A stretch of DNA of 64,000 nt from Acidobacteriota bacterium. Its GTDB lineage: Bacteria > Acidobacteriota > Terriglobia > Terriglobales > Acidobacteriaceae. The position numbers and the translations under genes are program-made. Numbering within the stretch: position 1 is the stretch's first letter; every line of letters begins with the position of its first letter. The notes under the pieces were generated by a model that was not told where the DNA came from, made no database searches, and was given only the letters and a program-made list of their open reading frames with translations. The stretch lies in NCBI GenBank assembly GCA_003225495.1, contig QIAJ01000128.1, positions 10,674-74,673 of the forward strand. Direction: 5' to 3'. Below, in pieces: positions 16,942 to 49,557 of this stretch.

Positions 16942-16969
16942 TAAAGTACTGGCGGAGAGGGAGGGATTC
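16942..16969. repeat. att site, left (28-bp direct repeat, displaced tRNA-Ser 3' end)
   Basis: TAAAGTACTGGCGGAGAGGGAGGGATTC identical to 49460-49487. Confidence 0.93.
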
Positions 16970-17919: not shown

Positions 17920-19227
17920 ATGGACTGCTTCCAACGTTTAATCGGTATTTGGCTTTGTTGTACATCCATACTCATTAGTCGGGCAGCCGCAGATACAGTC
18001 ATCGCTCTCGACGATGTAACCAATAGCGTCGTCGTTCGACTCAGCGCTTCATCCACGAGCGCTCGTGTTGGGACTCTGCAGCCCGGAGAACAAGCAGATC
18101 TGATTGGTTCAGTTCCGAACTGGCATCATGTCAAGCTAGCAAGCGGAACCCTTGGCTTCGTCTCGAAGCGCTGGACCCGGGTCATTGCAACCTCAACGCC
18201 GCCGGCCGGCGGCGCAGGTAAAACGAACTACACAATCGACGTTGTGGACGTAGGAACGGGCCTGGCGGTGCTTGTTCGCGGTCCGGATTTCACTTTGGTG
18301 TATGACGGCGGGTCCAATGACGATCTTGGCAGAGGGTCCGACAATCGTTTTCTCGCCTATATTCGGTCCGTCGCGCCGACACTCACCACGATTGATCAGC
18401 TCGTTCTCAGCCATCCGCATCGTGACCACGTTGAGCTTCTGCCGGATCTGTTTGCAGCCTATCAAGTGCGTCAAGTCTGGGATTCTGGGCGCGTCAATGA
18501 TATCTGTGGGTACCGGGCCTTTATTACTGCCGTACACGACGAAACCGGTGTTCAGTACCATGACGCGCTGCAGGGCACAGGAACGCAGACGTTCTCATTC
18601 AAGGCAACGACCTGTTACGGAACAGCATTGCCTGCACAGGACGTGCATTTGCCTGTCTCAAGTCGTATCGATAACCTTCCGGTCACTCTGGGCCAGAATG
18701 CGACGATGACAATTCTCCACGCCGACGGTGCAGACTATCCGAGTCCCAACCAAAATAGCCTCGTAGTCCGTCTCGACCTTGGCAACACCCGAATCCTACT
18801 AATGGGGGACGCGGAGGCGGGGGGCCGCCAGAATCCGTCAATGCAGCCGACGACGGACTCTATCGAAGGTCAACTCCTCGCCTGCTGTGTAGCCGATCTT
18901 ATGGCGCGTGTAATGGTTGTCGGACACCATGGCAGCAAGACTTCCTCGCGCCGGGCGCTTCTGAACGCGGTGAACGCGTCGTATTACATCGTTTCTTCTG
19001 GCCCGATGAAGTATGGAACGGTCACCCTCCCTGATCAGGAAGTCATCGATGAGCTCACATCTCGGGGCCAGGTTTTCAGAACAGATGTAAATGACCCTGC
19101 TTGCGCCCTGAATCCGGCAAAAATCGGCCCCGATTCGGATGGGAAAGCAGGCGGCTGCGACAACGTTCAAATCACCATATCTGATACGGATCAGATTCAG
19201 GTTGCTATGCGGCACGACCACGATTAG
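17920..19227 (+). CDS. Exported SH3-domain + ComEC/Rec2-like MBL-fold hydrolase
   Basis: N-terminal signal-like segment, SH3-like VVVRLSASSTSARVGTLQPGEQADLIG...WHHVKL, MBL motif LSHPHRDHVE, later VVGHHGSKTSS. Confidence 0.85.
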   Translation: MDCFQRLIGIWLCCTSILISRAAADTVIALDDVTNSVVVRLSASSTSARVGTLQPGEQADLIGSVPNWHHVKLASGTLGFVSKRWTRVIATSTPPAGGAGKTNYTIDVVDVGTGLAVLVRGPDFTLVYDGGSNDDLGRGSDNRFLAYIRSVAPTLTTIDQLVLSHPHRDHVELLPDLFAAYQVRQVWDSGRVNDICGYRAFITAVHDETGVQYHDALQGTGTQTFSFKATTCYGTALPAQDVHLPVSSRIDNLPVTLGQNATMTILHADGADYPSPNQNSLVVRLDLGNTRILLMGDAEAGGRQNPSMQPTTDSIEGQLLACCVADLMARVMVVGHHGSKTSSRRALLNAVNASYYIVSSGPMKYGTVTLPDQEVIDELTSRGQVFRTDVNDPACALNPAKIGPDSDGKAGGCDNVQITISDTDQIQVAMRHDHD

Positions 19228-19478
19228 TCAGGCGGCCCCAAAAACCTTCCACCCGTTTTCGGAGGCACCGTCGGGCAGCGGAGATCCAAAATGGAGATCC
19301 CGATCGAGAAAGTAATTCCGAATGAACACACTCATTCCTCCAGGCGCCGGATTACAACTCACCAAGGCATTCAACATCAACAATCGGTGAGACATTCTTG
19401 GCAAGTCGGTTCCGCTCGGGCGTCACAGCGGTCGACGACGAAGATCGCGGTCAACACCTTAAAACGAGGAGGTCTATC

Positions 19479-22298
19479 TTGAAGACCCGAATTTTCCGAG
19501 CGAGGGCAGGCACTGGGATACTCATGCAGGCGATGAGAATTAGGAAGCTTGCATTCATGTCGTTTCTTCTGGCCGCGGTCTGTTGGGCGCAAAACTTTGA
19601 CATCGTCACCAGGTCTACTCCACAGCCAGGAGTGGATCAGATCCGTATTGATCGGCCGAATCCGACCAAACGATCAGTCGATTACCGACAGATTACGTTT
19701 CAGCCTGACGATGATGTGACCATTGCAGCGGGCGGTTGCGTTCAGTCGGGGGGGACCGGGTCGACGTGGCACCGTTACGTGAACCCTTCGGGAGGAGATG
19801 CAGACAAGCTATATCACGGGCTGATTACGATCCCGTTTGCGACAGGTTCGCTCGAACGCATCCAGAAATACCAGAATAAGCGGGTACACGTCGCCCCTAA
19901 CGCGCAGCCGGGAACGCTTCATTTGCAGTTGGGATTCGAAGACAATAATTACTCCGACAACGGATACTACCGCCACGACGACGGACCCGATGACCAGTGT
20001 AAAGGTGCGACTGGCGGTCCTGCCTGGGTCGTGCTGGTTGTACGTCACAAAGTTGGGTCAGGACCGGTAACGAGCGGTGTGCGCGACTGGGATTTAAATG
20101 TCACGAAGTTTGACGACAATGGGATTCCGTTAAATCCAGACTGGCACCACCCCTTTCCAAATCCCGATACCTGCCGCTGGCCATGGAACGACCCCTCCAG
20201 TGAACCGGATTGCGTGAGTACGGGCCAAATTACGAACACGGATGAACACTACACCTGCGAAGCCTGGTACCACGGTAGCGATCACGGACTTGGTGGACAT
20301 GCCAATTGGACGGCAGCGACTTTTTCGGGACAGGTTTATTGGGATGGTCATTCCAATTCCGTCTCTGACGACGACGATTACGCTATGAACGTCTATACCC
20401 CGGGTCAGGCCATTGCGACGGCCGGAAGGATTGATGGCGTTCACGTCGAGTTCAGCAGCGACGAAACCGTGGACGTGCTCGTGGATGAGTTCAAGCTGCC
20501 GAAGTGGGCAGCGCTCCGCAAGGCGGTCGACGATGGGGACAGCGCGGCACAAAGGTTTATAGGTGGGTCTGAAATTATCGTAACCGGACTACTGGGCGTT
20601 GACTTCATCCACACTCCGGGTGCGGAGTCTCATCCAGCGTGGGCGATTGCGTGGCACGCCAACAGCGATTTTGCGGACGACACGTGGTCGTTTTTCGTGC
20701 GGGGCTGGGGTAACGAGGGTTATTGCAGTGGCGACCAACACTATATCTCGTATCTTGGAAATCAATATACGTTCCGATTTAAGTGGCCGGCCGGCGCTAC
20801 GGCTGGAGTTGTCAAGAGCGGCACAACATTCCTTACCAATGCGTCCAATGTGGGTGCGGCCACGGTTTCTTTCGTGCCGAATGAAGCAGTGTTGCTGACA
20901 TTTCACGATCTGCCAGATCCAGCTGTGCAAGGACTTGTCGCGGGCGAGTTGCACGTGAGTTGGACTGGCACGCCTTCGGCACCTAGGGCCTCCGGTGGAG
21001 AATCGCGCCAGCCGGCAGCGGCCCCGGAATCGCTTATCGACGAAGAACTCGCGGGGCTCACCCCGGCGCAGCGCGCGATATACACAGCCAATGCTCCGGC
21101 AAAGACCCGTGCCCCCGAGAAGCCAGTGGTCAAGATGCGTTGGCAACCTGGCCCGCCGCCGGACAAGGTCCGGGTTAATCAACATCCTCAGGTCCGCTCT
21201 GCGCCCGATGCGACAGCGGCGGCGCATAAGAACGCGCAAATCGAGGCGCTCAAGAAGGCAGGAGGCAAGGTTCCGGTTCCTCCACACCCGCAGCACCATC
21301 CCCCCGGGTTACACCCAACGCCAGGAGCGGGGTCGCCTCCGCCCGCAACCACTGGGGAGGAGTTCCCGTTCAATTTGGTCTGGGACTCCCTTGCGCCAGG
21401 CGGCTTTCCCCTCAACCCGCGTTGGAAGTGGCAGGTGGATCACGAGGGTTCGCCGAACCCATCGATTTGCCACTACTTCTCGAATGGCGACGGCGATCCC
21501 AGCTACGCCGATTGTACTAACCAAACCCACGAGGAGAACCTCCCAGAGGACTTCAACGGATGGTGGTGTCGCGCCAAGAACTGGGTCGGCGAAGGCTTCC
21601 CAGGCCATCTCAATTGGTTCGCTTCTACGTACCAAGGACAGGCGAGTTGGACCGATAGCAATGCAGACGACGACTACAATGTCGCGCTCGTGTCGAGCGG
21701 CGCACTTGGGGTCATGGCAGGTAGGGTAGACCTGCACACCGAGTTCGATGCCGATGAGATGGACATCGAGGACTTCGTCGGTCCGTGGTGGAATGCCATC
21801 TATGAGGACCTTTTTGCAGGTGAGAATGCTACGTCTCGTAAAGATAAGTTCCACTTAGCGTATTGGATCAACCCCGACCGCGGGGAACTGTTTTTCGCAC
21901 GTAAGGTTGTGCTCGTGGAGGGCGAAACGGAACGCGCGCTTTTGAACGCGTTTAGAATCCCTTACCTCGTAGTGCACGATGAAGACCCTGTCACTGCGTG
22001 CCCTGAACCGTTGCCAGAGGATTGGAATGCAGACAAACACCGCGAACAGCAAAGGACATTTGCGCTGAATGCCACGATTGCCGAGCTAATCGATCCTGAA
22101 CTAGGCTCCGTCAATGTTTTGTCACCCAAATTCGAGAATGTCGCAGGAGTGCCAAGAAGGCAGGGAGAGAAGAAGGGTAAGCCAATTGCTGCTTTGGATC
22201 ACTTCGTAAATACTAAAGTCGGAGACATTCCCCATTTGATTTTGCAGATCATTGATGCTGCCTACGGGACAAGCAGTCAAGACAAGTTTACTAAATAA
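19479..22298 (+). CDS. Chimeric ORF: exported duplicated-domain protein fused in frame to OLD-family TOPRIM remnant
   Basis: GAGGAGG then TTG start (ORF extends to 19398); signal-like MRIRKLAFMSFLLAAVCWAQ; two related W/D-rich units; C-terminus INPDRGELFFARKVVLVEGETE...VVHDEDP...RRQGEKKGKPIAALDHF. Confidence 0.75.
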   Translation: MKTRIFRARAGTGILMQAMRIRKLAFMSFLLAAVCWAQNFDIVTRSTPQPGVDQIRIDRPNPTKRSVDYRQITFQPDDDVTIAAGGCVQSGGTGSTWHRYVNPSGGDADKLYHGLITIPFATGSLERIQKYQNKRVHVAPNAQPGTLHLQLGFEDNNYSDNGYYRHDDGPDDQCKGATGGPAWVVLVVRHKVGSGPVTSGVRDWDLNVTKFDDNGIPLNPDWHHPFPNPDTCRWPWNDPSSEPDCVSTGQITNTDEHYTCEAWYHGSDHGLGGHANWTAATFSGQVYWDGHSNSVSDDDDYAMNVYTPGQAIATAGRIDGVHVEFSSDETVDVLVDEFKLPKWAALRKAVDDGDSAAQRFIGGSEIIVTGLLGVDFIHTPGAESHPAWAIAWHANSDFADDTWSFFVRGWGNEGYCSGDQHYISYLGNQYTFRFKWPAGATAGVVKSGTTFLTNASNVGAATVSFVPNEAVLLTFHDLPDPAVQGLVAGELHVSWTGTPSAPRASGGESRQPAAAPESLIDEELAGLTPAQRAIYTANAPAKTRAPEKPVVKMRWQPGPPPDKVRVNQHPQVRSAPDATAAAHKNAQIEALKKAGGKVPVPPHPQHHPPGLHPTPGAGSPPPATTGEEFPFNLVWDSLAPGGFPLNPRWKWQVDHEGSPNPSICHYFSNGDGDPSYADCTNQTHEENLPEDFNGWWCRAKNWVGEGFPGHLNWFASTYQGQASWTDSNADDDYNVALVSSGALGVMAGRVDLHTEFDADEMDIEDFVGPWWNAIYEDLFAGENATSRKDKFHLAYWINPDRGELFFARKVVLVEGETERALLNAFRIPYLVVHDEDPVTACPEPLPEDWNADKHREQQRTFALNATIAELIDPELGSVNVLSPKFENVAGVPRRQGEKKGKPIAALDHFVNTKVGDIPHLILQIIDAAYGTSSQDKFTK

Positions 22299-23844: not shown

Positions 23845-25603
23845 ATGACAATAACCGAACTGCAGTCGCAAAAGCGGTGGGGGCTGTGGCCACTGGAGAC
23901 TGTGCACGGCAAACAGACCAACATTCCGTACCAACCCAATGGGCGCAAGGCGATGGCGAACAATCCAGACACTTGGCACATCTATGCGGAGTGCGCGCTT
24001 GTGGTCTCCCGGTTTTCCGGCGTTGGGCTGGCGCTGGGGAATGGCGTGTTCGGGTGTGGACATTGACAAGTGCTGCGATGCCGTCACGGGGAAGTTTACG
24101 CCGGAGTCACGCGAAATAGTAATTGGCCTGGACTCCTACAGCGAATACAGTCCAAGCGGGACGGGTGCCCACGTTTTTGGCCTGGGGGAGCTGCCCGGCG
24201 ACGGGAAGCCGATTGTTAGACCAATTCCCGGAGCGAAGCAGATTGAGATTAAGGCAAAGGGCTTCTATTTCACATACAGCGCTCGACATCTTAGCAAGAC
24301 CCCCGCGAGCCTGATGCCGCGTCAGACGGAACTTAACGCGCTGTGTAAACACGTTCTATCCATCACACAATCAAAGCGCAGCCTCGTTATTTCCGGCAAT
24401 GAGGAAGAGAAGTACCGGAAGCTCATGGCTGGGGATTTCAGCGATTACGCCGGTGACCTCAGCCGCGCCGACCTAGGGCTGCTCAACATCCTGGCGCGAC
24501 GGCTGAACAATGACATGTTCAAGATGGATGAAGCGTGGATCAAGTCCCCGTTGTACCGGGACAAGTTGGAGCGCACAGATTACCGCTCTGCCACGATCAT
24601 GAAAGCCATCAAGGGCGAGCCCGTCTTCACTAATGAGGATGAAGACGTAATGGAAGATGATGGCATTGATGAGTATGTGGTGGAAGCCTGTAGTAAAGAC
24701 CACGAAGGTTGGTTCCCGCTGGGTGATGTGTCGCTAGTAGGTGGGTCCTCAGGGACAGGGAAAACCTACTGGATGATGACACTCTTTGAGAAGGTTCGTC
24801 GGGGTGCCGACGTGTGGGGTCACACGGCGCAAGCTCGTGATTACCGGGTGCTCATGTTGGACCGTGGCGCGAAGGCCATGCGGCGAACATTGAATAGGCT
24901 GGGATTGCCCCCGGAAGCTAAGGAGCGGGTGATCCGTGTGACAAGCGCGCAGCAATTGGCTGGACCCGTCGCCGTGCTGACCGAAACCACCGAGCGGGAA
25001 CCAGGCGCGAAGGCTTGGTTTGTTGAGGGCTTGGACCTGTGGTTAAAGGAGGCCAACAAGATGAGCGAAGTCGCCCAAGTGCTGGACGAACTCCAGCGCC
25101 TTGCTACGCGGCGGAATGTAGCCATCATCGCCAGCGTGGGCTCAGCTAAAGAGAAGACTGCTGAGGGCCGCGACTCAGAGCGTTATCACGGTAGAGATAC
25201 CTTGTTCGGCAGCGTGGCCTGGGGCCGTAAGTCGGAAACAATAGTCCTGATCAGCAAAACGGACAATGACCCCCTCCATGATGACTGTCCTAGACAATAC
25301 TCAGTCCTCGTGCGCAATGGGAAGTCAGAACATTTCTGGATGGGGTTTAAGGATGGCGAGTTGCAAATTGTGGAGAGGCCGAGACCGAAAATAGGTAAAG
25401 GCCCTCCGAGCAAAGCCGGTCTATTAAAGCTCAACGTTTTCGCGAAGTTCAAACGTGGTGAGCGGATTCGCTACTCACCGGACATGGGAGCGTCACCGAA
25501 GACCTATTACGATTGGCTAAAGGTCGCGGTAGCCGAGGGCCTGATAGAGCACAGAGATGGTACGTACTGGATGCCTGACAGTGTGAGAGGTAGTACTACT
25601 TAG
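23845..25603 (+). pseudogene. Prim-pol (NrS-1 polymerase-like) + RecA-like ATPase replication protein, frameshifted near 24055
   Basis: Frame 1 ...GVGLALGNGVFG joins frame 2 VDIDKCCDA...IVIGLDSYSEYSPSGTGAHVFG; Walker A GGSSGTGKTYW downstream. Confidence 0.75.
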
Positions 25604-47860: not shown

Positions 47861-49375
47861 CTACACCATACTTAACTTGACTGCAAACCCTCTCAACTTG
47901 CCATGTTGCGAGGCAAAAATCTCGTTCACCTTATTACGCACATGCTGGCTGCGAGACGGCTTCAAATACCGCATGGTCGATTCCATGTCCGAGTGACCGA
48001 GCCACTGCTGAACCGTGCGAAGATCGACCCCCGCCCAGAGGCATCGGGTTGCGAACGTAGCCCTGAATTTGTGTAGCCAGAAATTGTATTTATCCAGCTT
48101 CCCACCCTCGGCGACCGCCTTCAGACTATCTAGGAAATCGAGCTTGGGATTGCACCCGGAGGTCGGAAAGACGAGGCTACACCGCTTGTCAGACTTCGCT
48201 TTCCACGCCTTCAGACTCTTCACCAGCTTTGAAGGAATGGGAATCTCCCGCTCCTTGTACGCCTTCGGTGTCCACCCTCGGTCCGGCTTGTGGCTCACAC
48301 GAACGGTGCCAGCAGTGAGGTTGACGTCCGACCAGTACGCATACATGACTTCCTGCTCACGCATTCCTGTCATCAGGAAGAATTCATACCAGAGCCGTTC
48401 TTCGGAGTCACACGCCGCGAACAATTTATCCAGTTCCTCATCCTCGTAGATCTCTGGTTCTTCTTCGGTGTACCGCGGCCAATCGTTCTTGCTGGCCAGA
48501 CCGCGAATCCCTTGCGCTTTCAGAAACGTCATCACGTTCTCATACTTGTTGTACACGCTGCGTGGTGCCTGGTCTTTCTCGTCACGCAGGAACGCGGAGA
48601 ACTTCAGCAGGTCCTTCCGATCGATCTCTTCGAGATTGAGCTTGTGGCAGGATTCTACGAAGTACGAAAGGGCTGTCGAATATGCGGCAAGAGTCTTCGG
48701 TTTCTTTGTGAGCTTGGTTTCGTCAAGAAACTCTGTGACGGCTGCGGCTACCGATCGGTGCCCGTTGTGACCGTTTTCAGGCATCACAGAAACGCCGTTG
48801 TTCACTGCGTTCAACTCGGCTTCTTTGCGCTGGCGTCGGGCGCTGGCGTCGGCCGAGTCTTTGCCCACCGACAGACGCACTCGTTTTGCGCCTTCGCGCC
48901 ACTCAAGGTAATAGGCCCCTTCCAGATGTCTCTCTTCTTTTCCATCCACCAGCACGACATCGGGCTTAACTCGGCCGTTTGCGGACTGAGCGACGGGGCA
49001 GTAACGCATGCCATTCCCGGTCTGAACCCGCTTCGTGAGATTGACGGAATATCCGCCCGACCGCATAACGAACCGCTTCTGATTTTCTCGACGCGTGACA
49101 TATTCGAGATTTGAAGCGGCATTGTTGGTATAGTCGCCGTCCTTGTGCGTTGTCTCGTGCGCGGCCGGGCAGTCGCCTAGAAACGAAGCGGCGACCAATC
49201 CATGAACGGTACACTTTCGCTGGAATCCGTCGCTCGACAGGGTGACGTAGAGTCTCCCGTTTTTCATTCGGGTGGGCTGAAGAATTTTGCTGGTGTGGAT
49301 GTTGCGAACGTGTCCTTGGTCCGAAACCTGATAAATGCCGTCGTATCCAGAGACATCGCGCCATTGATCGGCCAT
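47861..49375 (-). CDS. Tyrosine recombinase/integrase with N-terminal NUMOD4/HNH-like domain
   Basis: N-term WRDVSGYDGIYQVSDQGHVRN...VHGLVAASFLGD...THKDGDYTNNAASNLEYVTRREN; C-term MTGMREQE, HKFRATFATR, WLGHSDMESTMRYL. Confidence 0.92.
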   Translation of the reverse strand: MADQWRDVSGYDGIYQVSDQGHVRNIHTSKILQPTRMKNGRLYVTLSSDGFQRKCTVHGLVAASFLGDCPAAHETTHKDGDYTNNAASNLEYVTRRENQKRFVMRSGGYSVNLTKRVQTGNGMRYCPVAQSANGRVKPDVVLVDGKEERHLEGAYYLEWREGAKRVRLSVGKDSADASARRQRKEAELNAVNNGVSVMPENGHNGHRSVAAAVTEFLDETKLTKKPKTLAAYSTALSYFVESCHKLNLEEIDRKDLLKFSAFLRDEKDQAPRSVYNKYENVMTFLKAQGIRGLASKNDWPRYTEEEPEIYEDEELDKLFAACDSEERLWYEFFLMTGMREQEVMYAYWSDVNLTAGTVRVSHKPDRGWTPKAYKEREIPIPSKLVKSLKAWKAKSDKRCSLVFPTSGCNPKLDFLDSLKAVAEGGKLDKYNFWLHKFRATFATRCLWAGVDLRTVQQWLGHSDMESTMRYLKPSRSQHVRNKVNEIFASQHGKLRGFAVKLSMV

Positions 49376-49459: not shown

Positions 49460-49487
49460 TAAAGTACTGGCGGAGAGGGAGGGATTC
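49460..49487. repeat. att site, right (28-bp direct repeat within tRNA-Ser 3' end)
   Basis: Identical to 16942-16969. Confidence 0.93.
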
Positions 49488-49557
49488 GAACCCCCGATAC
49501 CCTTTCAGGTATGCCGGTTTTCAAGACCGGAGCCATCAACCACTCGGCCACCTCTCC
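49468..49557 (-). tRNA. tRNA-Ser(UGA), CCA encoded
   Basis: GGAGAGGTGGCCGAGTGGTTGATGGCTCCGGTCTTGAAAACCGGCATACCTGAAAGGGTATCGGGGGTTCGAATCCCTCCCTCTCCGCCA. Confidence 0.96.

What the first reader, a model, noticed from the sequence alone, without database searches (positions are those of the whole stretch)
19479..22298. In-frame chimera of an exported repeat protein and an OLD-family TOPRIM remnant
The N-terminal ~800 aa carry a signal-like segment and two related W/D-rich units (WDLNVTKFDDNGIPLNPDWHHPF... and VWDSLAPGGFPLNPRWKWQV...; GHANWTAATFSGQVYWDGHSNSVSDDDDYAMNVYTPG vs GHLNWFASTYQGQASWTDSNADDDYNVALVSSG). The second unit then switches at ~21795-21850 into INPDRGELFFARKVVLVEGETE...YLVVHDEDP...RRQGEKKGKPIAALDHF, typical of OLD ATPase/TOPRIM nucleases. 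There is no ATPase domain. The spacing between the VEGETE Glu and the DEDP motif is only ~20 aa, shorter than I expect, so the TOPRIM seems internally deleted. An exported protein with a cytosolic nuclease tail makes no compartment sense unless the tail is repurposed or debris.
Basis: partly seen in the sequence, partly recalled or inferred. Interest (0 to 1): 0.75.

Follow-up and report, generated by a model that had tools for sequence, protein, structure and literature searches.

The report
Exported protein fused to nuclease debris
A gene for a secreted protein in a bacterium has been spliced, in frame, onto the broken last third of an unrelated anti-phage DNA-cutting enzyme, most likely an accident of recombination inside a mobile stretch of DNA rather than a new kind of weapon.

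Summary
One open frame (19479 or 19536 to 22298) encodes three joined parts. (1) A nearly complete exported protein with a signal peptide, whose relatives elsewhere are 557-750 aa, carry a single W/D unit and have no OLD tail. (2) A second W/D unit, closer to a paralog on contig C125 of the same genome (43%) than to unit 1 (38%). (3) The last ~166 codons of an OLD-family ATPase-nuclease, 55% and 48% identical to the intact proteins L013 and L014, with exactly 32 residues missing between VEGETE and NAFRIPYLVVHDEDP. The deletion removes TOPRIM beta-2, its invariant glycine and helix 2; the catalytic Glu, DxD, helical-domain Glu and Lys remain. The ATPase is absent, and no other relative of this OLD protein was found in the genome. 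GC drops from 0.60 to 0.49 at the join. The gene lies in a likely tRNA-Ser genomic island (exact 28-bp direct repeat at 16942 and 49460, integrase beside the tRNA). Best reading: in-frame fusion debris from illegitimate recombination; the exported part may still work, the nuclease part almost certainly does not. A mis-join in the assembly is not excluded without reads. Interest is low to moderate.

The parts
19479..22298 (+). whole mosaic open reading frame (TTG start with GAGGAGG; alternative ATG at 19536)
19536..19598 (+). signal peptide MRIRKLAFMSFLLAAVCWAQ
   Evidence: read directly from the translation; relatives also start with signal-like segments
19641..20048 (+). N-terminal exported domain, about 135 aa, 43-51% identical to six relatives, no Pfam or PDB relative found
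20085..20981 (+). W/D unit 1 and its native downstream part, homologous along its length to the exported family
20982..21311 (+). native C-terminal region of copy 1, low complexity and rich in P, K and A; aligns weakly to the C-end of the C125 paralog up to about residue 580; then a Pro-rich linker
21312..21794 (+). W/D unit 2, truncated, 43% identical to the C125 paralog of the same genome and 38% to unit 1
21793..21804 (+). fusion junction (WWNA / YEDLF), about 4 codons of uncertainty; GC falls from 0.60 to 0.49
21798..22295 (+). OLD-family C-terminal remnant (TOPRIM pieces plus helical domain) reaching the OLD C-terminus
21936..21947 (+). site of the 32-residue internal TOPRIM deletion (ERALL / NAF)
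16942..16969 (-). left copy of an exact 28-bp repeat (tRNA-Ser 3' end plus 8 nt), putative att site
49460..49487 (-). right copy of the repeat, the 3' end of tRNA-Ser(TGA) 49468-49557, putative att site
47861..49375 (-). tyrosine integrase with NUMOD4 and HNH_3 domains at its N-terminus, next to the tRNA

Best explanation
The ORF is a product of illegitimate recombination inside a tRNA-Ser-associated genomic island. A gene for an uncharacterised exported protein gained a second, paralog-derived W/D unit and was broken inside that unit and joined in frame to the 3' third of an OLD-family defence nuclease gene. The OLD part had, or later took, a 96-bp in-frame deletion in its TOPRIM core. Copy 1 of the exported protein is nearly complete and can plausibly still be secreted and do whatever that family does. 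The OLD-derived C-terminus is a passenger without the ATPase and without an intact TOPRIM sheet, exported away from any DNA substrate, and not a working nuclease. Shown: domain make-up, homology of both partners, the deletion, the compositional step, and the lack of another relative of this OLD protein in the genome. Inferred: the recombination route, the order of events, the island's activity, export, and loss of nuclease function.
For: Relatives of the exported protein with a complete reading frame (L004 620 aa, L005 630, L006 750, L007 589, L024 557, L027 687, C125 738) end without an OLD tail and have one W/D unit. The tail aligns to intact 600+ aa OLD ATPase-nucleases with a clean 32-aa gap. 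No other relative of the OLD protein was found in the genome and no close relative in 200 family or 396 phylum genomes. GC and GC3 step down at the junction, 0.604/0.717 to 0.490/0.518. An exact 28-bp direct repeat brackets 32.5 kb that holds the gene and an integrase; homology to genus relatives stops at about 16.62 kb on the left and resumes at 49.46 kb on the right.
Against: Three joins in a row keep the frame (about 1 in 27 by chance if no selection acts), and the tail keeps 76 of the 107 columns that are identical in L013 and L014 with no stop, so decay is either recent or resisted. The metal ligands are retained. The empty site of the island was not seen: in the relative checked with long contigs (G194) the two flanks lie on different contigs.
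Confidence: 0.72

Rival explanations
1. Assembly artefact: two unrelated sequences of the metagenome-assembled genome were wrongly joined near 21.8 kb, making a fusion that does not exist in the cell.
For: The genome is a 261-contig assembly, 91.6% complete with 2.57% contamination; GC shifts at the join; no second genome shows the fusion.
Against: The two copies of an exact 28-bp att-like repeat, which includes 8 nt of this tRNA's downstream flank, lie on either side of the join, in the same orientation, on one contig. The join is in frame, and no other part of the genome shares sequence with it that could have misled the assembler. A mis-join at 21.8 kb does not explain the separate 32-aa TOPRIM deletion.
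Confidence: 0.15
2. A repurposed effector: the OLD-derived tail has been kept as a compact metal-binding or nucleic-acid-binding module on a secreted protein.
For: The reading frame is kept to the OLD C-terminus; E47, E51, D67, D69, E119 and K132/K134 of A1 are retained, corresponding by position to Bp OLD E400, E404, D455, D457, E508 and K562 (PMC6755086; the correspondence is my reading, not a computed alignment). The deletion joins the first half of helix 1 to the end of helix 2, which could leave a short beta-alpha-beta link.
Against: Beta-2 and the invariant Gly are gone; the ATPase is gone; only one instance is known; the predicted model has no TOPRIM sheet (mean pLDDT 43.6), though the alignment was only three sequences deep and no intact control was run, so this is weak.
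Confidence: 0.08
3. A naturally modular exported family in which C-terminal domains are exchanged, and the OLD-like tail is one of many normal C-terminal modules.
For: The N-terminal domain occurs in a 1154-aa protein with a different C-terminal part (L025/L029), so the family does swap domains.
Against: None of the other members carries a nuclease-like tail, and the OLD piece is a fragment that begins outside any domain boundary and ends where an OLD gene ends.
Confidence: 0.05

Closest known systems
OLD-family ATPase-TOPRIM nucleases (Thermus scotoductus OLD, PDB 6p74; Class 2 OLD, PDB 6nk8; GajA)
   Same: The C-terminal 166 codons align at 55% and 48% identity with intact OLD proteins L013 and L014; catalytic acidic residues and Lys present
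   Different: No ABC ATPase domain, 32 residues of the TOPRIM core missing, attached to an exported protein
Uncharacterised exported protein family (e.g. G171, G135, G107, own contig C125; partial matches in Eleftheria terrae and Gemmatirosa plasmid records)
   Same: N-terminal domain, W/D unit and downstream part homologous at roughly 30-51% identity
   Different: Has a second truncated unit and an OLD tail in place of the native C-terminus
tRNA-associated genomic islands with tyrosine integrase
   Same: Integrase beside tRNA-Ser and an exact 28-bp direct repeat of the tRNA 3' end 32.5 kb away
   Different: Empty site not found in relatives; the integrase carries a NUMOD4-HNH N-terminus

Membership tests
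OLD-family nuclease | N-terminal ABC-type ATPase domain | tested here: not met
   No Pfam ATPase family in the ORF; no ATPase part of the relative L013 found elsewhere in the genome
OLD-family nuclease | TOPRIM core with invariant Glu, Gly after beta-2, and DxD | tested here: not met
   Glu and DxD present, Gly and beta-2 deleted; PF20469 matches positions 1-21 of 67 only
OLD-family nuclease | C-terminal helical domain with Glu and catalytic Lys | tested here: met
   FE at 118-119 and KGK at 132-134 conserved in A1, mapped by position to E508 and K562 of Bp OLD (PMC6755086)
OLD-family nuclease | Metal-dependent DNA cleavage | not testable with these tools
   needs protein
Uncharacterised exported W/D family | Signal peptide, N-terminal GC(V/A)Q(S/T)GG...DNGY...HD(D/N)G domain and one W/D unit with its downstream part | tested here: met
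   signal peptide judged by eye
tRNA-integrated genomic island | integrase, tRNA target and flanking direct repeat | tested here: met
tRNA-integrated genomic island | empty site in a relative | tested here: inconclusive
   homology stops at 16.62 kb and resumes at 49.46 kb, but the two flanks were not found next to each other in relatives

The most novel reading that the evidence does not exclude
The fusion is a real, expressed and secreted protein in which a minimal TOPRIM relic, with one beta-alpha unit removed but all metal ligands kept, acts as an extracellular metal- or nucleic-acid-binding module.
Probability: 0.05. Interest if true: 0.7.

Novelty: new member of a known kind. Interest (0 to 1): 0.22.

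Why it matters
If real, it is a clear example of how mobile islands join unrelated cargo genes, here a secreted protein and a defence nuclease, into open fused frames, and a caution that automatic annotation could label a secreted protein as an OLD nuclease. It says little new about OLD mechanism unless the shortened TOPRIM is shown to fold.

Tried and rejected
AlphaFold of the tail with three sequences (mean pLDDT 43.6) and of the exported part alone (32.1) were too poor for fold searches, so none was run. The idea that the N-terminal domain resembles LecA-like sugar-binding domains (from memory) was tested with a 7-sequence profile against PDB and by Pfam scans and found no support. Viral-contig scans failed each time because the machine gave no answer, so viral contigs were not examined. 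Phage records gave no match for either part. Plasmid records gave only weak OLD hits (Fusobacterium, Ilyobacter) and partial hits to the exported part (Eleftheria, Gemmatirosa). The metallo-beta-lactamase gene next door is not conserved in the genus and did not help. The search for an empty island site in genus relatives was inconclusive. A literature search for in-frame fusions in genomic islands gave nothing relevant.

Full report
Observation. The frame 19398-22298 is open and translates to an exported-type N-terminus followed by two W/D-rich units and a TOPRIM-like end. A GAGGAGG motif lies 6 nt before the TTG at 19479; an in-frame ATG that opens directly on a signal peptide (MRIRKLAFMSFLLAAVCWAQ) is at 19536. 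Pfam finds only OLD-like_TOPRIM, profile positions 1-21 of 67, above the curated cut-off. PADLOC GajA and Old models agree. The tail's frame has no internal stop while the other two frames hold 8 and 13.

The OLD part. Two intact relatives were found in 85,462 species genomes: L013 (Bacillota MAG) and L014 (Bipolaricaulota MAG). They are full-length ATPase-TOPRIM proteins. The closest solved relative of L013 by sequence is the Thermus scotoductus OLD protein 6p74 (organism name from my knowledge). Alignment A1 shows that the window tail equals their last ~190 residues, from the DLFEGEN motif to the C-terminus, at 55% and 48% identity, minus 32 consecutive residues. What is missing is the end of helix 1, strand beta-2, the invariant glycine after it (IDCG) and most of helix 2 (secondary structure assigned by reading the TOPRIM pattern). 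What remains includes VEGETE, HDEDP, FE and KKGK, which by position correspond to Bp OLD E400/E404, D455/D457, E508 and K562 (PMC6755086). No other relative of this protein was found in the genome, and no close one in 200 family or 396 phylum genomes.

The exported part. Relatives occur sporadically in the same bacterial family and once more in the same genome on contig C125. Those with a complete frame are 557-750 aa (a further N-terminal-domain relative is 1154 aa), have one W/D unit and end without an OLD tail. Their neighbourhoods differ. Unit 2 of the window is closer to the C125 paralog (43%, E = 5e-23) than to unit 1 (38%, E = 3e-11), so it is not a simple recent tandem copy. Homology of unit 2 to the family continues to the WW motif and stops there, which sets the OLD junction at 21793-21804. 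GC and third-position GC fall at that point, from 0.604 and 0.717 to 0.490 and 0.518, and the low-GC stretch continues downstream to about 23.8 kb. The family has no Pfam, NCBIfam, PHROGs or PDB relative.

Setting. An exact 28-bp direct repeat made of the last 20 nt of tRNA-Ser(TGA) and 8 nt beyond it lies at 16942-16969 and 49460-49487 (none expected by chance), with a tyrosine integrase beside the tRNA. In genus relatives, homology on the left ends at about 16.62 kb and on the right starts at 49.46 kb in most. The fused gene thus sits in an accessory 32.5-kb segment that is very likely a genomic island, close to its far end, together with a primase-like gene and a small HTH gene. The two flanks were not found adjacent in the relatives checked, so an empty site was not seen.

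Mechanism. The simplest account is illegitimate recombination inside an island that carried both kinds of cargo. In L013 the OLD gene is nested among BREX genes by PADLOC and in L014 between frames that look like type I restriction subunits, so this OLD type is defence cargo. The resulting protein would be exported with a nuclease fragment that has neither ATPase nor a complete TOPRIM sheet and no DNA to act on. Three in-frame joins in a row have a chance of about 1 in 27 without selection, which is not strong evidence for function. Retention of 76 of 107 OLD-conserved columns fits a recent event as well as constraint.

Limits. Reads were not available, so a mis-join at 21.8 kb stays possible. 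Against it stand the paired att-like repeats on one contig across the join and the absence of any shared sequence elsewhere in the genome that would mislead an assembler. Structure predictions were too poor to use, and viral contigs could not be searched.

Noticed in passing
window 47861-49375 (-): Tyrosine integrase with NUMOD4 and HNH_3 homing-endonuclease-like domains fused at its N-terminus (Pfam), next to tRNA-Ser: an unusual combination.
   Followed up: partly
L013 1366-7856: An OLD ATPase-nuclease gene lies between two open frames that match the first and second halves of one BREX PglX profile (positions 1-657 and 665-1303 of PDLC02527), as if inserted into a split pglX.
   Followed up: partly
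L014 6-5196: An OLD gene lies between frames that look like a type I restriction HsdM and HsdS (judged by eye from the translations).
   Followed up: no
own genome C125 12499-12601 (L030): A 104-bp, 88% identical copy of part of the window's primase-like gene (24149-24252) lies about 4 kb downstream of the exported paralog, so both exported genes sit near pieces of the same primase.
   Followed up: no
window 17920-19227: ComEC-like metallo-beta-lactamase with an SH3-like domain and a signal-like N-terminus directly upstream of the fused gene; not conserved in the genus.
   Followed up: partly
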